In this document: positions 1 through 14,011 of the stretch, piece by piece | Layout of the letters: each line of letters opens with the position of its first letter | Position numbering within the stretch: position 1 is the first letter of the stretch | Virus record (IMG/VR): IMGVR_UViG_3300032092_000261 | Span: 1-23,631 of that record | Origin: a virus | Direction: 5' to 3' (one strand) | Length of the DNA: 23,631 nt | Program-made: the position numbers and the translations under genes | The notes under the pieces: generated by a model | Seen by the model: only the letters and a program-made list of their open reading frames with translations | Database searches by the model: none | Told to the model about the DNA's origin: nothing

Positions 1-3000
1 AACCTGCCGTTTACCGGCCAGACACCATAGTCGATGATGCCCGAAACATTGCCGGTCTCTGGTTCATAGCTGGCTTGCTTTTTCAGCAGTACGCCGCCCA
101 TCTGCCCCCCACCCACCTTCGGCAGCAGCTTCTTGAGCGCCGTGGGCACGATGGTGTCGTAGAAGGCTTTCATGCCTTCGCCGCCAACCTTGAGGTCTAG
201 GCCGGTCAGCGCGTTGTGTCGCGCCAGCAAAGCGCCCTCGCGGGAGCCCTCGCCGTTGATGATCTTTTGCGCGATCTCTTTGCCGACGACCTCATCCAGC
301 TCGCTCTTGGCGACAATCCTGTCGAATGCCACCCCGCCAGACTTGGCGACCGCATGGATGCGATAAGTGCCGGGAGGCAATCCCTCGTTCGACATTGCCT
401 GATCGCCATCTCGGTACTCGATGGTCTTGATCTGCTTGCTCAGGTCATATCGCTCGGCGCTTTGCGTCCCGTTGACAAACGCCACGCGGTCATAGCCGCC
501 CTCTGCGGCCATCGTGATGATGCGCTTGAGAGCAAGGTTGAGCCAGCCTTCGGTCTTGGTGACGTAGGGGGCGCGAGGCACACCAGAGTCATTGAGACCA
601 AGGAATCCTTCGTCCTGACCCTCCATGCCCTGCATGTAGGTGGGATCGCCCTTGAACCCCTTCTTCTTTCCCTCCTGCCCCCAGTCGGATTGAATTTCCT
701 CAACAAACAGCACGCGCTTGCCATCTGCATCGGTGCGGTCGTTCACGCGGATGTGGGCGAGGACGTTGGGCTGGTCCCAGTGGGTGGAGCGGTAATTTTG
801 CGGGCTGTCTTTCGCTTCAACTTTGCTTACGACGGCCCCAATGTTTGGACGGGCGTCATAGGCTTCCTGCTGAGTCGCGAACCCCTGTTCAGATTCTTGG
901 GTATCGGGGTCGTACCATTCCCACGTTTCTTTCTTCGGGCTCTCCGGCAGCGTCAGCAACATCTCGCGGTAGTTCTCGCCGCCCGGAAGGGTGTACTTGC
1001 CGTATTTCGGCGTCGATCCCGGCGGCCGAGTAGCGCCGTATTCCAGCTCGCGCAGGCGGCGCACATCGTCAGACTCCAACACACCGCGTTCGCCACCCTC
1101 GTGGCGGCGGCGCAGGTCGCGCAACTCGTTGAGCTCAACCTGCTCTGCTTTGCTCAGTCCGGCATCTTCACCCAGCACCGTTTCCTGAACCTGTACCCCA
1201 TTGGCATTCAGGTACTCCAGCACCTGCTCCTTGCTGACTTTGCCGGCCTGCAGCGTCAGCCAGTCAGTAATGCCGCTCCACTCCACCTCGTCGGCCTTGG
1301 CTTGGCCCTTGTTGACCATGCCCTTGATAAGCTCCTTCCAGCCAACAGCGGGGGCAGCAGAAGTCTTGCTGGATTCGATAGATCGCGCGAGGGCAGAGTA
1401 AAGGCCCAGCGGGGTGATGTCATCCCTACGGAATGCTGGCGAATTGGCGCTACGGCTGAAAGCCGCATCTGGTGTGTTGGCTTCTGGTGGCTTGGCGATA
1501 GGGGCGCTTGGAGCGGTGGCTTGAGGCGACATGCTCTTGGCCTCGTCTGCCATGGACGGCAGTGCATACAGGGCTTGCTTGTCCATCAGCAGGTCCAGCA
1601 CCTTCACCGCGCTGGCCGGGTCGTCCACATTCGCAACCATCGCGTTGACACTGGAAACAAAATCGCCCGCCTCGGCAATCAAATTCTTGTCTAAAAAGTA
1701 GCGGGCGCCCTGTGTCTTGGACTTCGGAACACGAACCTGAATACCAGCCCCTTTGGGCAGCACACGCACCAGTCCGTCACGGGTGGCAATGCCGAACCTT
1801 CCAATGTCCTTGTTGGTGCTTTGCTGCAGGAACTTGAGCGCATCTGCTCCACTGCGCAGGCGGTAGTCACCCTGCGTGTTCTTGCTGAAATCAAACAGCT
1901 TGGGCAGCAAAATACCCTGCTCGATCACCCCGTCAGCCTTGGTGAAGCTGATGATGGTGCCGCGCACGCCCTTGATTTCGCCATAGGCGGCCAGCAGGTT
2001 GCCCGTCACGATCTTGGCGGTTTCGCGCTGGTTGGCGGGTTGCTCCTTGAAAAGCGTTTCCACCCGGAATGCAGGCGCAATGCTGGAAACCTCGATCTTT
2101 CGGAACTGGGTCGCCGGCACGGTGATGCTGCGCAGTGCCCCATTGAGTGCCACAGTGATTTGGAACTTGCTCAGGCTGAACGGGTTGCCCGTGCTCTTGT
2201 GCGTGTTGCGCACGTTGGTGACGACCGCGTTGTAAGGCTCGCTGTTGATGTCCACACGGAACGTTTTGCCAATGGCATGGCTGCGCACGAAATCATCGCC
2301 AGTGGCTACACCTTGGGCTTGAGACAACTCGCGCACGGTCAACGCGCCAACAGGCTCGCCCTTCATGGCTCGCCGCATTGCCTGCTCTGCCATGCTGGCA
2401 GCCATGCCCTCGCCAAACAGCGGCTTGAGCAACGCGGCATATTCCTCCTGGTCGAAGTTGTCGCCCTGGCCCACCTTCTGCGCCAGCATCGCATTGGTCT
2501 GGTCCACATAGGTCTGCAGCAGGCCCGACAGCATCGCCTGCGCGTGCTCTGCGCCGGTCTTGCCCTGCAGATTCTCCGTCATGACCGCCTGGATTTCATC
2601 GGGCTTCATGGCCACACCCTGAGCCTTGATGGAGTATTCGCCGTACACGGCATCCTCTCCAAACGGCGTGGCCTTGTTGGGGCCTTCAAACAGGATCTCG
2701 GAGCGCACTTCCTTGGCGTCGTAGTCGAACGTGCGCGGCTCCAGGTCGTTCTGGTTGGTCTTATTCAGGTATTCAATCAGCGCGTCGTACTGCGCCTCTA
2801 CGTCCTCATAAAAAGCGCGCTGCACTTCCACTGGCTGAAGGGCTAGGCGCCCCGTGGCCCTGCGAGCAATGTCTTCGGTCACGCGCTCGCCATCGAGTGA
2901 TACCAAGTCGTCCATGCCCAATTGCCTGGCCAACTCAAGGTTATCTGCCAGGTACTCGTTGACGATCTGATCGCCATACTTGTTAAGGATGTCTGCCGTC

Positions 3001-6000
3001 TTGACCGATGTAGCCGATTCCGTGTTGCTCGATGTGTTCGCGTTAAGCGACTTCATCTTGCGCGACAGTACGGCGGTCGGCCGCTTCTCGGTGGGCAAGT
3101 CCACACTTAGGATGGTGTATTTCGGCAGTCGCACCTGACCGGTGCGATGCACGCGACCCAACATCTGCATGAAGATGTTAATGTCACCAGCGGCCTGGGC
3201 CACGATCATGTGGCGCTGGCGCTGGTCCGCGAACTTCTCTGAAGCGTGCAGACTAATGCCGGTGGAGCCCGCCACATTCAGGATGAGCGCATCCAGCTCG
3301 CCGCCATTGAACTTGCGGGTGGATGCCACTTTGTCGCGCTGCTCGGTCAGGTCAATGGCGGCCAGCACGGGATTGCGCGGATTGCTGTAGTCCACCGACA
3401 GGTTGCGCCCGGTAATCTCAGCAACGCTGAACCCGGCCCTGGCGATCTCGGCCCGCATCCAGTCGATTGGCGACACGGGAATATCAATGTCAAGGGAATC
3501 AATTACGGCCTGCGCATCGTCGTAGGCCCTGCGTGTGATTGGGTCCAACTTCGACAGGGGAATGTTCTGCTTTTTCTTGTCGCCAGTGGGCGATACCACA
3601 TTGATTACTCGGCTACGCTCCAAGGCGCGCGACAACACCGTGCGATAGTCAAATGCTCCAAGGCTGTCACCCTGCGCAATGTTGTTCTGCTCTGCGTACT
3701 CGGCCAGAAAGGAACCCATCGTGTTTTCCACAGCGATGATGGGTTTTTCTCCCCGCTTGAGGGATGCAATCGCCTCGTCTGCGGCGGTCTGCGCCTTGAG
3801 TCCCAGCAGCATCTGACGCACGAAGTTATGCACCACGCTGGAAAACTCGGTGTGCTGCACGCCAGCAGAGACCTGATTGCCAGCGTTATCCTGCACCGTG
3901 GAGCCCTCTTTTTTCAGTGCCTTGTCCATCGACTTGACGAACACGGAGTGAAACTTCTTGTCGGCAGACACGATGGCGCGCAGCGCCTGGGTGGCCTCGT
4001 CACTCAGGCGCTCGTGCAGCGCGCGGTTACTGGTGTCGAAGGTGGATGCAATTGAAACCCCGTCATAGGACCGCTCGCGGCGGAACATCTGCCCGGCTTT
4101 CACCAGGTTGTTCGATACCACCGTCTGCAGCGGCAGGCCACCGGCCGCCATGGCATCACTCAGGCCATCAGCATCAGCTGCCGCGTCCCCAATGTCCGTC
4201 TTAAAGTACAACGGCATGTTGTCGGGCCGCTTGGCGTAGGTGGCGCTCAGGTAGGTCACGCCTCGGGCTTGTGCAAGCGCGGAAATCATGAAATCCCCGG
4301 TGCCGGATGCGCCTGCAGCATTGTGCGATTCGTCCAGCACAAACACAGCATTGCCAGACAGCGCCATGAGCGCCTGGCGCTGCAGGTTGGCCGTGTTGAT
4401 CTGCGAATACGTCATGAACATGGCGTTACGGCCCTGTGGCAGCTTGCCGTTGTCCACAATGGATTGCACGGCCGCCCGGTGCGTCGATGCCTTGTTGGAG
4501 AAAAGCTTTTCGCCGTCCGCGCCGGATACCCAGGCGTCGGAATTCAGGATGAACGGGGCCACATCATGTGTGCCTATATCGGCCAGGTCGCCGTACATAT
4601 CGGTGAACAGGCTGGGCTTGACGCTCACAAACACCGGGGTCATGCCGTTGCGAACGGCCCAGCGGATGATAGATGCGGCTTGCCGCCCCTTGCCGATGCC
4701 AGTCTGGTCGGCAATCACCACCGCCTTGCCCTGCTTGATCTGGTAGATAGCAGTGGCCACGGAATCCACCTGCAGGCCCATAAGGGCGTTGTGCAGGGCT
4801 TCGACCGATGGATAGCCCAGTTCCTTGCGTGCGAACTCGTCGATGTCGCCTACAGCATCTTCCAGTCGGTTGAGCGCATCCTGCGTGGGCTGCGCCATGT
4901 TGGACGGGATCAGTACACCCTCGTCCTTGCGCGCGCTGCGCGGCGTGTACGCCACCTGGAATTCGTTTCCGGCGGCGGGTTCTGCGGGTGCTACCCCAGT
5001 TGTTCCAGCAGGCTTTGCAGGTCCGCTGGCGGCAGGTTTTGAATCTGCCCCGGCTGGCTCCAGTCCAGGCGGGACAAAAGACTGGCCATTGAGTCGCTGC
5101 TCGTCAGGTATGTGCCCCACTGGGTCCGTGGTTGTCCCTGTGAGATCAGAAACAGCTCCGGCAGGTGCTCCTGCGACATTTCCAGCGCTGCCTCTGCTTG
5201 CTCTGGTGCCTGGTCGATTAGCGACTGGAGGTGTTTCGCTAGCAAATAGCGGTACTCCTGAGGGTCTGGCTTTTCCGCTGTCGGCACCGACAACAGGCGT
5301 GCTTGACCCTCGGACAGGTCGCCCGCCGGCATCCAGAATTTTTGTGAACTGCTCATAGACTTGATTCCAATTGTCCGCCCGTTGGATGGTTCCTGCAACT
5401 GGCGAAATCTGATTCGACTTTTGGTGGCCGTCAATCACGATCACGCGCACGGGCCAGCCCGCACCCTGGCGCGTGTAAAGGTCGCCTTCCACCTCGAAAT
5501 GGCCGGCCACGTTGTAGTGCGAGTAAAGCCAGTTGAAGAAAATGCGGTCGTCTGTGCTCAGGCCACCCGGCGCCTTGTTGGCCCCCAGGATCAGCACGGC
5601 ACGGCCGTCCTCCTTCATGGTTTCCAGCGCATACGCTGCAATCAAGTGGTCGATCTGGCCAATGTTGTAGCCATCCACCTTGACCTTGATGGGCTTGCCA
5701 TCCTCACCCTTGACGGAGCCAAAGGGCGGATTGGTGATGACGGCATCTACCGGACCACGGCTGTCACGCATGGGGCCGATAGCCGCATCTTTTTGGGTGG
5801 GGTTGAAACCCTGCTCCTTCAACAGCGACACCCGCAGATCGTTGAGCTCGTTGACGACTGCATTGGCCGGGTCGGCGCCTATCAGCAGCATGCCCGTGCC
5901 GCCGGTGGGCTCGTGCACGATGGTCTTGCGGTTGATGCCGGCCAGCTTGGATGCCAGGTAGGCCAGCGGCGCCGGTGTGCTGTATGCCTGATTGGCAATG

Positions 6001-9000
6001 CTGGTGCTGGTCCGCACGTTGAGCAGCGGCTGCGATTCGTACAGCCGCACCAGGGATGCAAAGGTGCTGGCCGGGCCTTCCTTGTCCAGCTTTTCGATGC
6101 GTGCGCGTGCCTCCTGCACGATGGCCGCCTCCAGAGACTCCTGCGCTTGCTTCATTCGCTCTTGCGTGGCTGGCTTGCCGTCGAAGGCTTCCACCAGCTT
6201 CTTGAGCGCCGGGTTGTCCTTGGGCATCCGGTTGGCCGCCAGTTCCTCGCGCAGCGTCTGGGTAAGCGTGCGCGCGCCGGGTTCGTCGGCGGCACCATCC
6301 TGCGCCTCGTCGGCAACGGCTGCCTCGTGCGCCTCAATCTCGGCTTTCGTCTCTACGTCGATGACCGTGCGCTTTGTGTCGGCATCGGGCTTGCCTCCCG
6401 CCATGGCGATGTAAGCGCCCTGCAGGTGGTCCAGCGTCAGCGCATCAGCAGCGTCGTCACCTAGGTTTGCGCTGATTTGATCCAGGGCGAACTTGGCCGC
6501 GTCCTTGAACTTGTGGTACCCCAGGCGGAAAGCAGCATCCAACAAGCGCGTGAGCACGGGCAGCAGCTTTTGCTCCTGCTCGGGCATGATGTTCATGCGA
6601 GTGTTCTTGCCCAGGATGTCGCCCAGGTCGGCCAGCGCAGCCATGAGGTCGGCTTTGGCGCGGGTCTTGTCGGCGCTGGGCTTCTTCTTGGGTGCTACCT
6701 TTTTTGGCGCGGCGGCTGGCGCCGGTGCTTGGGCGGCGCCAATCAATTCCTGTAGCGCTTTTTCCGTCTTGAAGAACGTGATGTGTTCCGCAAACGGCGC
6801 CATGTCCTTCTGCTCAATGGCTTTGATCGCGGCGTCCTCGGCATCGAAGCGCGTGCGGCGCATCGTTTGCAAGGTGAACTCTGCGCCTTTGATCTGGGTT
6901 TGCGCGCGGGTTTTTTCTTCCAGCGTTGTGCCGTCCTTCGCTGCCTCGTTGCGCAGGCGCGTGACGCGCGCTTTATGGGCCTGCATATCGGCATCCAGCG
7001 CTGCGGCGATAGCTGGCGGCACATTCACCACGCTATCCGATGGCGCAGAGGCCGGTTGAGCTTGCTCGCTTGGCACCTGATCCGCTTGCGCATCCTGCAA
7101 AGGTTTTTCTGCGGTGGTGCTGCCGCCTTGTCGCTCCATTTCGGCAACTAGCTTTTCCTGCTCGCGGATTCGCTGCAATAGCCGGTCGTCAACTACTGCG
7201 CCTTGGCTTGCCTCGCGGGTACGCAACTCAATGAGGTCATTGCGGGCGTCCAGCAGTGTGTATCCAGGCTCTCCAGGCTGTGCGCGTGTCGGGGAGGTTA
7301 GCCCTTGCTCTGCCCCGCCGCTTTGCGTCGTTGGTGCAGTCTCAGCAGAAGCCCCGCTACTCATGGCGCGGGCCAGCGTGTCCTGCGTGCCCGCCACCAT
7401 GTTCCCCCAGCTTGTCCGCAAAAGCCGTTTGCCCACCAAATTCAACCCGCCAGCATTGGTGCGCCAGCCTGCGAGCTTTAGCGCGCCCTCGCGCTCCAAG
7501 CTGGTCATGCGCGTCCACCGCGCGCCCACTTCGTTCAGGTCTGACGCCTGTGTTGTAGCCGTCGCGCCTTGCGTTGCGCTCGTTGCCGCTGCTTGCGCTC
7601 CATTTTTCTGAGCCGGGGCGCCATTGGTCAGTGCCCGAACTTCTGATGCGCCAGCAGGGGCTTGCTGGGTGCTGCCTTCGATTGCTGCTCCTGCGGCTGG
7701 CGCTGTTCCTGCTTGCGTTGGTTGCGGGCTTGCTTCGATGGCTTGAGGGGCTTGAGGCTCACTGGTTACTCCTGGGGTGGTGGTTGCGGCTGGCGCAGCA
7801 CGGCGCTGCACCTCCTTTTGCAGCTTGGCTGTGCGCTTGTGTGCAGGGCCGTAGTGCTCGATGGCCACTTGCAGCTCCGCGTCCGTCATGTCCGGGATCA
7901 GCTTGCCGGTGATGGCCTTGATGTCGGGTGCAGTCCCAGCGGCTTGCACGGCGGGGGCGGCGCTGGGTGCCTCGGTGGCAGCGGGTGCAGGCTCTTGGGC
8001 AGCCTGGGTATTCGTGCCTTGCTGTTTCGCGGCACGAATCTGTGCGAATGCGTTTTTGAGGCTTTGGCCAAAGCTAGGCCCTGGGTGCGCCGTCTGACCG
8101 GCTGCGCCCATAGTGGCGGCTGGCGCACCTGTGAAGTTTGTGGGCTGTAGCCGACCTGCTACTTGGCCCTGTTGCGCCTGGTTTGCTCCAGTACCCTGGC
8201 GCGGATTTGCGGGCTCATTCGCCTGAGCGCCAGGATTGCCCGCAGGATTGCCTTGCGTGCTTTGGGATCGGCTGGAAGTGGTGGCAATGACATCTTGAAT
8301 TTCCTCCTCGGTAGCGCCCGTGGCGCGTAACAATTGATCGTCGCTCACGTTGCCGGAAGCGCCTGCATCGGCTATGACAGCAGCATTTTCCGCATAGCTG
8401 GCTGCCATGGGATCAGCGTCAAGGCTTTCAAAATACTGTAGGACAAAGGCTTGATCCCAAGGGTCAGCATCCTCGAAGTCGATTTCCCGATAGCCCGGAT
8501 TTGTTGGCTCGGTCACGCCAGTGTCAATCGCGGTCAGCGCAGCGGCAGACAATGATCCACCTTGCGCGGCGGCGGCTGCAACCTGCTCACGAACGGGGTT
8601 GACTGGCTTGGGCTCTACATCAGTCACATCGCCCACATAGGAGGGCACTTGATAGGCTGGTGTACGGGCTGTGCCGTCTGCACCCACCTGAATCACGCCG
8701 GGGTTTGGTGCTGGCAATGCCAGTGTTGGGCCGGGCGCTGGTGGTTGTGCGGGAGGCTGTGCTGGAGGCTGGTCGGGCGGCGGGGGAGTCGTCTTGTTAT
8801 CGGTGCTCAAACCAGAAAAGCCAGCGGCACCGCCACCCATGGCCATACCAGCCAGCGTACCCATGACAGCCGCATCTTCCACGCCTTCATGCCATGGCTT
8901 GTTAAGCGCCAGGTTTTGCAGCACTTGCTCTGCTACTGACTGCGGCAGTTCCTCTAGCAGGCCCTCAGAGATCGCACCCTCAATAATTTGGCGTGGGATG

Positions 9001-9881: not shown

Positions 9882-11888
9882 TTAGGCGGGAACGGGAACC
9901 CCGTTTTTGACCACATAAGCCTTGCCATCCTTGCCTTGCAGGCGCTGGCCTTCCTTATAGGGGGACGCCTGTGCGCCGCCATTCAAATCCACCCGTTCGG
10001 CCTGTCCGGTGGACTTGTTGTAGCGGATCACGCTGCCCTCGGTAGTGCTTCCGTCTGCGTTCTTGGTAGTCGGTGTCACCTGGACGGCCCAATCTGCGGG
10101 GTCTGACTTACCTTGAAGTCCTCTGATCTGGCGCGCAAGGGCTGCCTGCTTTACCGGGTCTTTCTCTGTGGTGTAGGCATTTTGCAGGTTCTCCAGCTGC
10201 TGCGCAGCCCGTGTCTGGAACCCTTGCGCCTCGCGCTTCATGCTCAACTCTTGCCCCGCAAGGTTTATGCGGTTTGCATCACGCGCATTGGCTCCAGCTT
10301 CCTGCATCCCTGTGCGGGTTGTGGCTCCTGTTTGTTGCATATCCTCGCGCTGAATGCCTGCGTTTTCACGCATAGCCGTCACGTCCGCTACTGGCTGGGC
10401 TTGTTGCAAAGCCTGATCGGTGGCCAGTGCAGCCTTGTAGGCAGCCATGGCGGCAGAATCACCCTTGCCACTTTTGTCCCAGCGCCCGCCGTTGTTGGTG
10501 ATTGAGCTTGCAGAAACCTCCAGATTGCGCAGGTTGTTGCGGGCCTGCCAGTCATTTGTGCTGTTGCGTACCGTGGGCGCGGTCACGCCTCGAGAGCCGT
10601 TAGCGCCAGGGAACCCAGCGGCTACTGGCATCGCCGGAGTGCTTGAACTCTTGGGCGCGAGACTGTCTGAAGCCGCCATGTTTTGCGTGCTTGGCTGTGC
10701 GGTGATCCCTCCAGGCAAGGCCGTTCCGGTGGGAGTATCGCTGTACTGGCCGGGCGCGTTGCGGTACACACCTGGGGCGATTGCGGCTGAAGAAGACGGC
10801 GCGGCAGACGGCGCGGCAGGTGCTGCGCTCGGGTCCACTGCGGGAGGGTTGACCACGCCGCGAGCGCCACCAGCAACCGTAGCAGCGGGTGCGGCAGGCG
10901 CCGCGCTTGCAGTAGGAGCGGCGGGAGGCTGTGCAGCGTCGTCGCTGCCAAAGAGGCCGCGACCAAAACCGACTGCTGCATTCAATACAGGCGTTGCTGC
11001 CTTGTCAGCCATCTCGATGCCGTACATCGGAAGACCCTGCACAGATGTGCGTAGGGCGGTACCGGCAGCCTGCGCATAGTTGCCAGCGCCGACCTGATCT
11101 CGCATTTCTTGCACACGATCTTGAATGTAAAGACCTGTAGGGCTGGCGTCCTTCGTTGCAGCGACTGGTTTATTGGCAGGCCGCTCTGGCGGGCGATTGG
11201 CGGCAGCGGCCTGCGCGCCTTGTACGTACATGGAAGTCTGGTTCTGTAGTCGCGCCTGTTCCTCAGGGGTTTTGACCCTGCCACCATCATTAAAAAACTG
11301 CTGTGGCTCGCCCCTGGGTTTGAATCCGAGCGCCATAGGTTGCTCACCCTCTGCGGCCTCGTCGTCGCCCTGCCCTGTCGGCGCATGGGTCACGCCCTTG
11401 ATAGCATCCAGCACAGCCGCGCCGATAGCCTGTACCCGCTCTGGGGGCAATTCGTACTCACCATTGCTCACGCGCACAGGCACCTTCTCGCCCTCTGCCG
11501 CCTCATCGTCCAGGCCCAGCGCCTGCGTGGAATCGGCAGGCATGATGAACGTGCCGGGTTCCATTTCGTCGGGAATCGAATCGCTTGTGCCGGTTCCAGG
11601 CCCACGGATCATCCCGCCATTTGCCAAACCCTGCTCTTTCTCACGGCGCTGCATGGCACTCATGCCCGAGTATTGAGTAATTGCAGCGGGTGCGGGTGCT
11701 GGTGCAGCCGCTGCCTTTTTGGCTGCTTCCCTCTCACGCGCAGAGTTGGCCCTGTATTCGGCCAGTGCTGCGGCGCGCGCAGGGTCCTGTGGCTTAAATC
11801 CAAGCGCGCGCTTGAAGCCATCGACAAGACCGCCGTCTGCGAATTGCTGCACAGGCTTGCGCTGCGCTTTTGGTTGGAAACCGTACAT
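9882..11888 (-). CDS. 668-residue low-complexity phage virion protein (probable internal/ejected protein)
   Basis: The ATG at 11888 follows AGGGG at a workable distance, and the gene ends with TAA 72 bases before the giant gene. The N-terminal 210 residues hold internal repeats: ALGFKP at 28-33 and 186-191, DDEAAEGE at 127-134 and 175-182, and QQF-x(1-2)-DGG at 14-20 and 196-203. Residues 96-106 read GPGTGTSDSIP, followed by FIMPAD and SNGEYELPPE; such segments recur in phage virion proteins. Residues 318-380 are Ala/Pro-rich. Residues 506-592 are charged and Gln-rich and probably form a long helix or coiled coil. The C-terminus reads GKDGKAYVVKNGVPVPA. No catalytic motif is visible. Position just before the DarB-like gene suggests a protein packed in the capsid or tail and ejected with DNA. 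This role is inferred. Confidence 0.85.
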   Translation of the reverse strand: MYGFQPKAQRKPVQQFADGGLVDGFKRALGFKPQDPARAAALAEYRANSAREREAAKKAAAAPAPAPAAITQYSGMSAMQRREKEQGLANGGMIRGPGTGTSDSIPDEMEPGTFIMPADSTQALGLDDEAAEGEKVPVRVSNGEYELPPERVQAIGAAVLDAIKGVTHAPTGQGDDEAAEGEQPMALGFKPRGEPQQFFNDGGRVKTPEEQARLQNQTSMYVQGAQAAAANRPPERPANKPVAATKDASPTGLYIQDRVQEMRDQVGAGNYAQAAGTALRTSVQGLPMYGIEMADKAATPVLNAAVGFGRGLFGSDDAAQPPAAPTASAAPAAPAATVAGGARGVVNPPAVDPSAAPAAPSAAPSSSAAIAPGVYRNAPGQYSDTPTGTALPGGITAQPSTQNMAASDSLAPKSSSTPAMPVAAGFPGANGSRGVTAPTVRNSTNDWQARNNLRNLEVSASSITNNGGRWDKSGKGDSAAMAAYKAALATDQALQQAQPVADVTAMRENAGIQREDMQQTGATTRTGMQEAGANARDANRINLAGQELSMKREAQGFQTRAAQQLENLQNAYTTEKDPVKQAALARQIRGLQGKSDPADWAVQVTPTTKNADGSTTEGSVIRYNKSTGQAERVDLNGGAQASPYKEGQRLQGKDGKAYVVKNGVPVPA

Positions 11889-11958: not shown

Positions 11959-11965
11959 CATCAGG
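11946..11965 (-). other. stop-codon hairpin, 6-bp stem with 8-base loop
   Basis: In the minus-strand transcript CCTGAT pairs with ATCAGG around an 8-base C-rich loop. The TGA stop of the 348-residue gene (11963-11961) sits inside the 5' arm. No run of U follows, so this is not a convincing terminator. It may slow RNA decay or affect coupling to the next gene. Confidence 0.4.
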
Positions 11966-13007
11966 CTAAAACGCTGTCCCAATCGGTGCGATCCGTCTCC
12001 GTACCGTTGTATCCACCCTTGGCACTGACCTGATTCATCAGTGTCGTCACCATGTTGCCGAACATATCCACCACCTCATTGGCGTTGGCCATGCGCAGCT
12101 TGCCCAAGAAGTCGCCCCTGTCGGCTGTACTAAGGGCATCGAACTCCAGTCCAAATCTGCGTGAGCTGGTTTTGCGGATCAACCCCGTGATTGCGGAATT
12201 GAATTTTTCGTTCAGGGCGATCACGCCATTGACAGAATCGACCACCTGATTCTGGTCGTTGATCCACATACCGCGTGCTCTGAGCTTGAGCTTGAAGCCT
12301 TCGGCCACCTTCTCGTGCAGCTTTCTTGTGCGGTCCATGCTGGTGTCCAGCAATGCACGCACCATGCGCATTTTTTCTGTGCGCTCTTGTTCCAGGCGGG
12401 AGGCATGCGCGCGCGTCAACGCCTCGGTCGCGGACGCGATGCTGTTGCCGTGTATGCGCGCCAGAGCATCCATTGCATGACCATGGGCGAAACGGTGCCC
12501 GGCTGCGGCTGCTGCGTCCAGCGTCTCGCGCTCCTGTGCAAATGCCTGCCGACGCGCCATCAGGAACGCCGTTTCAGCCGGCGTGCTGTCCACCAGATCG
12601 TTATAGGACATCCCGATAGCGGACGCCAGCGCCGACTGAACGAAAGCCTCAGCGCCCGCACCAGCCGCGCCCATGCCTGGGAAAAGCATGTCCAGTTTTT
12701 CCAGGTAGTCGTCAAAGAACGATCCCACCACGTTGTCCAAGAACAAGGGCATGCTGGCAATCTGCGGGTCGATCCCTTCCAAGTTTGCTTTGCTCAGTGC
12801 GCCTTGCGTTGCCACAAACTTTTCTCGGTAGCTGACGCCCGTCGCGTTCGGCTTTGACGGTATGCTGCTCAGTGCGGCATTGATTTCCTTGTCAACGCTG
12901 GAGCGCATCGCTCTATCAGCCTTGTCGATCATTTCAGAAATCTTGTCGATGGCCGTGTAAACGATGGCCGCAGAAATACCTTGTGCAGCAATTCCAGTGG
13001 TTGTCAT
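11961..13007 (-). CDS. 348-residue helical virion protein, probable internal protein
   Basis: I place the start at ATG 13007 (MTTTGIAAQG) because a strong AGGAGG-type ribosome site precedes it by about 9 bases. The open frame extends to 13235, but those extra residues are an Arg/His/Gln-rich shadow of the upstream gene. The start lies 2 bases after that gene's stop. Residues 10-30 form an Ala/Ile-rich helix. The remainder is Ala-rich and helical, with a Gly/Ala hydrophobic stretch around the LFPGMGAAGAGAEAF segment and a long charged helix about two thirds along (EALTRAHASRLEQERTEK). The C-terminus ends in a polar tail (TDRTDWDSVLA). I do not recognise a named family. Place and composition suggest an internal core or ejection protein like its neighbours on both sides, but no motif proves this. 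Confidence 0.85.
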   Translation of the reverse strand: MTTTGIAAQGISAAIVYTAIDKISEMIDKADRAMRSSVDKEINAALSSIPSKPNATGVSYREKFVATQGALSKANLEGIDPQIASMPLFLDNVVGSFFDDYLEKLDMLFPGMGAAGAGAEAFVQSALASAIGMSYNDLVDSTPAETAFLMARRQAFAQERETLDAAAAAGHRFAHGHAMDALARIHGNSIASATEALTRAHASRLEQERTEKMRMVRALLDTSMDRTRKLHEKVAEGFKLKLRARGMWINDQNQVVDSVNGVIALNEKFNSAITGLIRKTSSRRFGLEFDALSTADRGDFLGKLRMANANEVVDMFGNMVTTLMNQVSAKGGYNGTETDRTDWDSVLA

Positions 13008-13009
13008 GG

Positions 13010-14011
13010 TCAACCCCCTCCTGCGTCTATGCTGTTGGATTCCGAGGCGGTCGAGTTGACGCTGACCCCGGCACTGTTCAAGGCGGCAGCGGCACGAGAC
13101 GAATACCGGCGCAGCAACTTGATGTTTGCTTCTGCCAACATGCTGGCCTTGGTGTTTGCGCGCTCCACCAGCGCCTTGAGTTGCTGCGTTGATGCCTGGC
13201 GCGAGTCGTCCGTGGACATGACACGCTCCTCCCAAGAGGAAAGCTCCGCGCTGCGCACATCCATCCGGGCGCGTGCAGCCTGCTCGCCTCGCTGCAACCG
13301 TGTCAGGTAGTCGTTATTGCGACCAAACACGTCAAACATCAGGTGCATTTGCGTGAAGGTGTGCTCCATCGCTGCATTGAGCGCTTCGTTGTAGGCACGC
13401 AATAGCGCCTCGGCGGCATCGACCCGCATCTTGTGCCGCTCCGCTTCACGATCGGCTGTCATTTGCACACTGGCCCGCGCGACATGCAACTGCGCCATCT
13501 GTCCTGCCACCGCGCTATGCGCTGCAGCCACCCCTGGCGGTACAGCAAGAGCACGGGCACTAGCCCACTGCGTTGCAGACAGCGCATACCCCGATGCCTG
13601 ATCCATGCGGCGGTCGTATCCGACATTGCCAATGCCATCATGCGACCCAATAACCGCACTCAGCCAGTTCAAGGCAATGCGAAACCCCGGCCCCACTGGC
13701 GCGGCAGTCTTGATGATGTCTTGAAACTCCGTGGACCAGCGCTGTGCAACCTGTGCAAGCTGGCCACGCACGGACAGGTCGTGAGCCGCCACCAAGGCAG
13801 CCGCCTCGTCGCCTGCGTAGAGGCTCAAAAACTTTTCAATAGACGGCGCCCCACCGCCCACACCTACGCCAGTAGCAGACCCAGCCGATGCGCCCAAATC
13901 GCGCGAAGACAATCTCTCGGCATTGGCATAGCTGGTCATAGCCATGTTCCAGGCCCGACCAAGCAGCGCGTCAAAAAGCAGCGCTGTAGGTAGCGCTCGT
14001 CCGTTGGCCAT
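13010..14011 (-). CDS. 333-residue Ala-rich helical virion protein, probable internal protein
   Basis: The ATG at 14011 lies 1 base after the stop of the upstream gene and is preceded by GGAGA about 8 bases away. The protein has a Gly-rich segment at about 40-55 (GASAGSATGVGVGGGAP). A long helical, Gln/Ala/Arg-rich region follows from about 170 to 310, with probable coiled coil (for example AELSSWEERVMSTDDSRQ). The C-terminus is Ser/Asn/Gly-rich. There are no transmembrane segments of the usual kind and no catalytic motif. With the 348- and 668-residue genes it forms a set of three helical, low-complexity proteins just before the giant gene, the usual place of ejection proteins in short-tailed phages. 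Function is inferred from that context only. Confidence 0.85.
   Translation of the reverse strand: MANGRALPTALLFDALLGRAWNMAMTSYANAERLSSRDLGASAGSATGVGVGGGAPSIEKFLSLYAGDEAAALVAAHDLSVRGQLAQVAQRWSTEFQDIIKTAAPVGPGFRIALNWLSAVIGSHDGIGNVGYDRRMDQASGYALSATQWASARALAVPPGVAAAHSAVAGQMAQLHVARASVQMTADREAERHKMRVDAAEALLRAYNEALNAAMEHTFTQMHLMFDVFGRNNDYLTRLQRGEQAARARMDVRSAELSSWEERVMSTDDSRQASTQQLKALVERANTKASMLAEANIKLLRRYSSRAAAALNSAGVSVNSTASESNSIDAGGG
13014..13022 (-). promoter_or_regulatory. strong ribosome binding site for the 348-residue gene
   Basis: The minus strand reads AGGAGGGGG inside the 3' end of the 333-residue gene, with about 9 bases between its GGAGG core and ATG 13007. It decides the start and rules out the longer frame to 13235. 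Confidence 0.75.

What the first reader, a model, noticed from the sequence alone, without database searches (positions are those of the whole stretch)
4991..5356. Probable overprinted gene hidden in the linker of the giant methyltransferase/helicase gene
In the +1 frame on the same strand, 121 codons from ATG 5356 to TAG encode a well-formed acidic protein with helix-like segments. Hand count: third positions are G/C in 85 of 121 codons in this frame, but only 52 of 121 in the giant frame across the same bases; a 52-codon stretch of the neighbouring helicase in the giant frame gave 42 of 52. The giant frame translates there to a Gly/Ala/Pro/Ser linker, as expected if it is only kept open. Nested genes inside phage giant genes are little described. 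An acidic small protein beside a methyltransferase/helicase could be an anti-defence partner (speculative), or the frame could be reached by a +1 frameshift.
Basis: partly seen in the sequence, partly recalled or inferred. Interest (0 to 1): 0.85.

Follow-up and report, generated by a model that had tools for sequence, protein, structure and literature searches.

The report
Hidden gene inside phage methyltransferase-helicase gene
A second, acidic protein of about 120 amino acids is written in a shifted reading frame inside a giant phage DNA-modification gene, and the same hidden gene occurs in many relatives, including bacterial plasmids, where evolution preserves the hidden protein rather than the linker it overlaps.

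Summary
The finding is confirmed and wider than reported. A +1-frame ORF of 92-160 codons between methyltransferase and helicase is present in 67 of 68 viral or genomic loci spanning that linker, down to 32% identity of the giant protein, and in 8 of 18 hand-picked plasmid loci. In 8 disjoint close pairs selection switches frame: in the linker the nested frame is constrained (ratio 0.37) and the giant frame is not (1.33); in both flanks the giant frame is constrained (0.27, 0.16) and the shifted frame is not (0.92, 0.99). Picosynechococcus plasmids show the same switch. Shine-Dalgarno motifs and stops just before the ATG favour internal initiation over frameshifting. No convincing match was found in Pfam, PHROGs, NCBIfam or PDB; models of two subgroups have pLDDT 87.6 and 89.0. 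Function is inferred: most likely a non-catalytic partner of the methyltransferase-helicase. No expression data were available.

The parts
4991..5356 (-). Nested (overprinted) gene, ATG 5356 to TAG 4991, 121 aa, acidic, predicted folded
5357..5376 (-). Internal start region; GGAA at 5365-5368 is a weak Shine-Dalgarno-like motif (a GGA lies 5-14 nt upstream of the ATG in 21 of 21 loci of the window's subgroup, own contig included)
3..9845 (-). Giant host gene, open over 3281 codons, cut by the window edge at its 3' end; true start uncertain (TTG 9845 is only the first possible one)
5361..6068 (-). Adenine methyltransferase domain of the giant protein (NPPF motif at 5732-5721); limits approximate
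   Evidence: (phrog_6263, phrog_9133)
2937..4730 (-). Strawberry-notch type SF2 helicase (AAA_34 and Helicase_C_4) of the giant protein; limits from the Pfam matches

Best explanation
SHOWN BY SEQUENCE ANALYSIS: a protein-coding gene is overprinted in the +1 frame inside the segment that joins the methyltransferase and helicase of a giant 'polyvalent' protein. Selection maintains the nested protein; the giant frame there is only kept open. INFERRED, strong: ribosomes start at its own internal site on the giant mRNA. INFERRED, moderate (about 0.45): the product is a small, acidic, non-catalytic partner of the methyltransferase-helicase that binds and regulates or couples it, made from the same message and so supplied together with it. 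Gene reality about 0.95; partner role about 0.45.
For: Open nested ORF in 67 of 68 spanning viral or genomic loci, own contig included; 62 distinct nested sequences. ATG at the homologous place in 21 of 21 of the window's subgroup. Codon-position bias in the nested frame in 62 of 62. Selection switches frame between flanks and linker (linker nested 0.37, bootstrap 0.24-0.42, giant 1.33, 0.88-1.70; methyltransferase 0.92 and 0.27; helicase 0.99 and 0.16), and in Picosynechococcus plasmids (linker nested 0.41-0.62, giant 1.48-1.79). SD match of 6 or more nt in 32 of 67 against 17 of 1780 other out-of-frame ATGs of the same genes (where several ATGs were possible the one with the best SD was taken, a bias). 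Profile comparison links seven subgroups, phage and cyanobacterial plasmid, into one family; reversed and column-shuffled decoys give 0 of 210 and 0 of 210 at P<1e-3. Two confident models with a similar order of helices. For the partner role: of 113 profile hits in the fetched loci 112 lie in such a long overlapping frame and the other is the minus-strand copy of one of them; likewise 45 of 45 in the A4 scan (many contigs are the same). Distances co-vary with the giant flanks (Mantel r 0.73 for 20 loci, 0.85 for 17; 0 of 999 permutations each). Conserved columns are mostly hydrophobic or small residues. It also occurs on plasmids typed as mobilizable, so a virion-only function is unlikely.
Against: No transcript, ribosome or peptide evidence. 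The window's own SD is weak (GGAA). Frame openness alone is not decisive. The selection test rests on relatives, because the window's nearest relatives share only about half of the nested residues; in the window's subgroup the nested protein is only slightly better conserved than the giant-frame translation of the same bases (mean distance 0.65 against 0.68; nested closer in 128 of 190 pairs). In more distant pairs the nested ratio reaches 1 and up to 1.30, and one flank control (few changes) is as low as 0.38. Direct profile comparison of A1 with A4 is not significant (E 0.059); the link runs through an intermediate subgroup. Short and outlying subgroups, BS-TP4 among them, are not linked by profile. 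Ten of 18 plasmid loci and one of two phage records fetched have both enzymes but no nested ORF, so the pair can exist without it.
Confidence: 0.75

Rival explanations
1. The nested gene is real but codes an independent small effector (for example an anti-defence protein) that merely shares the message and does not bind the methyltransferase-helicase.
For: Small, acidic (negative in 64 of 67, median net charge -9) and fast-evolving (mean distance 0.65 against 0.38 for the giant flanks in the window's subgroup), as many anti-defence proteins are (general knowledge).
Against: No copy found outside a methyltransferase-helicase gene in the searches made; an independent effector would be expected to move on its own.
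Confidence: 0.3
2. A hidden selfish element, like the out-of-frame HNH endonuclease of the ShiLan insertion in mycobacteriophage methylases.
For: Same geometry: an in-frame insertion in a methylase gene whose other frame codes a protein (PMC11855218).
Against: No endonuclease family match, few His and Cys (means 1.3 and 0.6), near-universal rather than patchy presence among the viral loci, and co-variation with the host gene.
Confidence: 0.03
3. The frame is reached by programmed +1 frameshifting, giving a methyltransferase with an alternative C-terminus.
For: In the window the nested frame is open 26 codons upstream of the ATG.
Against: In-frame stop directly before the start in 23 of 67 and at most 6 open upstream codons in 41 of 67; strong SDs.
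Confidence: 0.02
4. Not a gene: composition of a Gly/Ala/Arg/Ser/Pro-rich linker keeps the frame open.
For: Openness is only modestly improbable in single loci.
Against: Frame-specific selection in two sets; codon-position bias in 62 of 62; relatives without the gene show short +1 frames of 31-87 codons.
Confidence: 0.02

Closest known systems
Polyvalent-protein methylase-helicase dyad (Iyer et al. 2017, PMC5512222; section 14 and passages read); phage P1 DarB is its archetype
   Same: The host gene: adenine methyltransferase with NPPF joined to an SF2/strawberry-notch helicase, in phages and plasmids.
   Different: The section and passages read mention no nested gene, and 'overlap' does not occur in that main text. 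P1 DarB does not align convincingly with this segment (best E 0.003) and no family member was found in the P1 stretch fetched.
ShiLan out-of-frame HNH endonuclease (PMC11855218; abstract, introduction and passages read)
   Same: Protein hidden out of frame in an insertion of a phage methylase gene.
   Different: [quoted passage not shown] here another family, +1 frame, ATG mostly with SD, widespread and co-varying with the host gene.
Cas11 made by internal initiation within a CRISPR large-subunit gene (PMC11899642; seen in search listing only)
   Same: Small protein made by internal initiation within a larger gene of a nucleic-acid machine; works-like analogy.
   Different: Cas11b there is made in frame (title); here the product is out of frame and unrelated in sequence to the host protein.
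Overprinted genes of viruses (review PMC8227390, search listing only; Rz/Rz1 and phiX174 genes from recall)
   Same: Same kind of gene: an alternative frame inside an older gene.
   Different: The protein family, the host gene, and the spread over phages and plasmids.

Membership tests
Overprinted (out-of-frame nested) protein-coding gene | Complete ORF in another frame inside a functional host gene | tested here: met
Overprinted (out-of-frame nested) protein-coding gene | Purifying selection on the nested protein | tested here: met
Overprinted (out-of-frame nested) protein-coding gene | Translated product | not testable with these tools
   Only start-site signals available
Polyvalent methylase-helicase dyad (host gene) | Adenine methyltransferase with NPP(F/Y) | tested here: met
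   NPPF invariant in 12 of 12 aligned; phrog_6263
Polyvalent methylase-helicase dyad (host gene) | C-terminal SF2/SNF2-type helicase | tested here: met
   Helicase_C_4 81 bits (cut-off 30.5), AAA_34 53.2 bits (cut-off 27)
Polyvalent methylase-helicase dyad (host gene) | N-terminal LPD36 domain | not tested
   No model was looked for
P1 DarB-like genes carrying the nested ORF | Nested ORF at the homologous place in P1 darB | tested here: inconclusive
   The linker could not be placed in DarB; +1 frame has a 177-codon stop-free run elsewhere, not recognised as family
ShiLan-type hidden HNH endonuclease | HNH endonuclease domain | tested here: not met
   No HNH match in Pfam scans
ShiLan-type hidden HNH endonuclease | Disjunct distribution among close relatives | tested here: not met
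   67 of 68 viral or genomic loci; Mantel r 0.73 and 0.85
Programmed +1 frameshift product | Nested frame continuous with an upstream shift site | tested here: not met
   Stop directly before the start in 23 of 67
Known folds | Structural match to a solved or viral predicted structure | tested here: inconclusive
   No significant match

The most novel reading that the evidence does not exclude
An ancient, previously unrecognised protein family is written out of frame in the methyltransferase-helicase genes of phages and plasmids and is an integral subunit of these DNA-protection machines; the long 'linker' of the giant proteins is mainly the translational shadow of the hidden gene.
Probability: 0.45. 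Interest if true: 0.9.

Novelty: new variant of a known kind. Interest (0 to 1): 0.82.

Why it matters
Annotation pipelines tend to suppress overlapping genes, so this family has been nearly invisible: of 9 annotated records seen here with the ORF, one carries it as a gene (Gloeobacter pGMOR1, WP_230844304.1, at the price of splitting the giant gene; PLSDB gene tables are incomplete). It adds an unstudied component to anti-restriction 'polyvalent' systems, shows that a protein linker can be a by-product of another gene, and is directly testable in a culturable laboratory cyanobacterium (Picosynechococcus PCC 7002, plasmid pAQ6).

Tried and rejected
Stop counting as proof: rejected as insufficient (134 stops in the +1 frame of 68 linkers, own stops included, against 230 expected by codon permutation and 213 by synonymous recoding). 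Standalone homologues: none found by pattern scans of viral contigs with A3 and A4, the A1 profile in 399 genomes of one order (its only hit was the fragment already known as L015), tblastn of three nested proteins, each in one collection (in phages, 118 in plasmids), or nine subgroup HMMs over 12129 six-frame segments of the loci then fetched (its test of 'embedded' was lax: an overlapping frame of over 900 bases or one running off the locus). A separate small gene between separate methyltransferase and helicase genes was suspected in Gloeobacter pGMOR1 and rejected: the giant frame is open there too. Persicobacter pPP10 does have the two enzymes as separate genes, with no nested gene and no profile hit in the part fetched. 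Weak family hits: Pfam DUF2947 E 0.00048, 1 of 11 members; PHROG_33636 E 0.003, 1 of 16; PADLOC HEAT-ARM_XIII E 0.0047, 2 of 16. None is shared by most of the family; treated as chance. Pfam and PHROGs were run for both A1 and A4, NCBIfam for A1 only, PADLOC for A4 only. Foldseek and VIA-align gave no convincing neighbour (best PDB E 1.0, best BFVD E 0.74 with the A1 model only, best Z 2.4). Rows left out of the counts: 15 loci between L065 and L086 in which only the helicase matched (8 of them looked at: no fused methyltransferase upstream), the truncated L010 and L015, and 139 of 219 relatives that the tool did not keep.

Full report
What was checked. The ORF lies at window 4991-5356 on the minus strand, +1 relative to a giant frame open over 3281 codons and cut by the window edge. 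In sliding windows along the giant ORF, GC3 of the giant frame drops to 0.41 here and stays at 0.51 or more in windows that do not overlap this place. None of nine other same-strand ORFs inside a larger frame shows so clear a coding pattern, though 10622-10981 has the same order more weakly. Over relatives, second-position GC is the lowest of the three in the nested frame in 62 of 62 distinct sequences, against 9 of 62 for the same +1 reading of the flanks; mean GC1/2/3 is 0.62/0.38/0.72 nested and 0.57/0.40/0.60 for the giant frame in the flanks.

Relatives. A 900-residue segment of the giant protein (residues 1231-2130: methyltransferase, linker, helicase) found 10 other viral contigs and three genome contigs; an alignment of twelve found 219 relatives, of which the tool keeps 80 loci. 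The linker is spanned in 68 loci, counting the window's own contig, two genome MAG loci (L014, L016) and two named phage records (L017, L018). 67 of the 68 have a +1-frame ORF of 92-160 codons placed alike, with ATG in 66 and GTG in one (L035). The exception is Acinetobacter phage MD-2021a, L018, 25% identity. Four sets of loci have identical nested DNA, leaving 62 distinct sequences. The +2 frame is riddled with stops: 898 in 68 linkers, against 134 in the +1 frame with the ORFs' own stops included; the +1 expectation is 230 by codon permutation and 213 by synonymous recoding, so openness alone is modest evidence. In ten relatives of the window's subgroup the nested proteins are 29-50% identical to the window's while the giant segment is 56-72% identical.

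Plasmids. Of 18 plasmid loci fetched (L092-L099, L148-L154, L156-L158; chosen by hand from 666 and 261 matching records, not a random sample), 8 carry the nested ORF: Chroococcidiopsis, Picosynechococcus PCC 7002, 7003 and 7117, Synechococcus NIES-970, Leptolyngbya, Gloeobacter and Thalassospira. Ten do not: Vogesella, Persicobacter (domains on separate genes), Pseudomonas aeruginosa, Yersinia ruckeri, three Xanthomonas, Bordetella flabilis, Serratia symbiotica and Cupriavidus. Loci without it often have a shorter distance from NPPF to Walker A (242-328 residues in seven) than nested-bearing loci (321-510), but L018 (359), L150 (381) and L151 (511) are long without it, so length alone does not predict the gene.

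Selection. Substitutions were classed by their effect in both frames. In 8 disjoint close pairs the linker shows 84 changes that alter both proteins, 127.5 that alter only the giant and 40.5 that alter only the nested protein; per site, the nested-frame ratio is 0.37 (bootstrap over pairs 0.24-0.42) and the giant-frame ratio 1.33 (0.88-1.70). In the flanking methyltransferase and helicase the giant ratios are 0.27 and 0.16 and the sham nested ratios 0.92 and 0.99. The pairs were picked for low divergence from the list; among all pairs under 33% divergence the nested ratio nears 1 in some of the more distant ones, up to 1.30, where saturation and alignment error enter. Four Picosynechococcus-type plasmids show the same switch: linker nested 0.41-0.62, giant 1.48-1.79; flanks giant 0.05-0.24; sham nested ratio in flanks 0.38-1.22, the lowest from nine changes. 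The six pairs there are not independent. By protein distance the nested frame is closer than the giant-frame reading of the same bases in 132 of 136 pairs of the A4 group but only 128 of 190 in the window's group.

Start site. In the window's subgroup the ATG is at the homologous place in 21 of 21, with a GGA 5-14 nt upstream that overlaps or adjoins a conserved Trp codon of the giant frame. In the more distant group a full AAGGAG stands 7 nt before the ATG, and often a nested-frame stop directly before it. Overall, SD matches of 6 or more nt: 32 of 67 against 17 of 1780 other out-of-frame ATGs of the same genes; stop directly before the start: 23 of 67. This fits internal initiation and speaks against frameshifting.

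Protein. Net charge is negative in 64 of 67, median -9, median pI 4.5; W-x-P near the N-terminus in 48 of 67. Profile comparisons join subgroups g1, g1b, g1c, g2, g3, g6 (cyanobacterial plasmids) and g10 by a chain of matches (P from 8.7e-16 to about 2e-5); decoys give none below 1e-3. Subgroups g4 and g5 and six single-sequence groups (BS-TP4 and Thalassospira among them) are not joined to these. AlphaFold2 gives mean pLDDT 87.6 and 89.0 for two groups, with a similar order of helices; the two models were not superposed. No convincing database relative was found.

Mechanism. What is shown: a conserved, selected coding frame with its own start signals. What is inferred: its translation; and that the product serves the methyltransferase-helicase, because in these searches it is found only there, co-varies with it, spans phages and plasmids and shows no obvious catalytic residues. 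Iyer et al. (PMC5512222, section 14) describe the host dyad as a module typified by DarB, a P1 virion head protein that protects DNA against type I restriction; the window's giant gene lies on the same strand as, and downstream of, virion genes (major head protein and others), in keeping with that.

Novelty. Of ten library searches, seven bore on this question and their listings showed no description of this nested gene; the other three sought proteomics or analogies. The closest is the ShiLan hidden HNH element (PMC11855218), a different protein with disjunct distribution. The library holds open-licence papers only, so absence there is not proof.

Noticed in passing
L012 and L070: The stretch between methyltransferase and helicase is about 150 residues longer than in the other viral loci (NPPF to Walker A 510 and 499); in L012 the extra part follows the nested ORF.
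   Followed up: no
L098 / L155 (Persicobacter pPP10): Methyltransferase and helicase are separate genes overlapping by 4 bases, without nested gene or linker, although the helicase is 48% identical to that of nested-bearing L073: gain, loss or split order could be worked out here.
   Followed up: partly
L156:3312-3761: Automatic annotation of Gloeobacter pGMOR1 calls the nested ORF a gene (WP_230844304.1), starts the helicase at an internal ATG and lists no gene over the methyltransferase, although the giant frame is open throughout.
   Followed up: yes
15 loci between L065 and L086 (helicase-only matches): A group of viral contigs with a related helicase (about 45% identity) that, in the 8 looked at, is not fused to this methyltransferase.
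   Followed up: partly
window 10622-10981 minus: Another +1-frame ATG ORF (119 aa) inside the upstream 668-codon gene, with a weaker coding-like GC pattern (0.74/0.59/0.71).
   Followed up: no
L150, between NPPF and Walker A: Xanthomonas citri plasmid relative has a 275-codon stop-free run in the +2 frame without an ATG ORF; may be only high GC.
   Followed up: no
window 11961-13235 minus: Weak match to the N4 RNA polymerase helical domain (Pfam PF21894, E 0.059, below cut-off).
   Followed up: no
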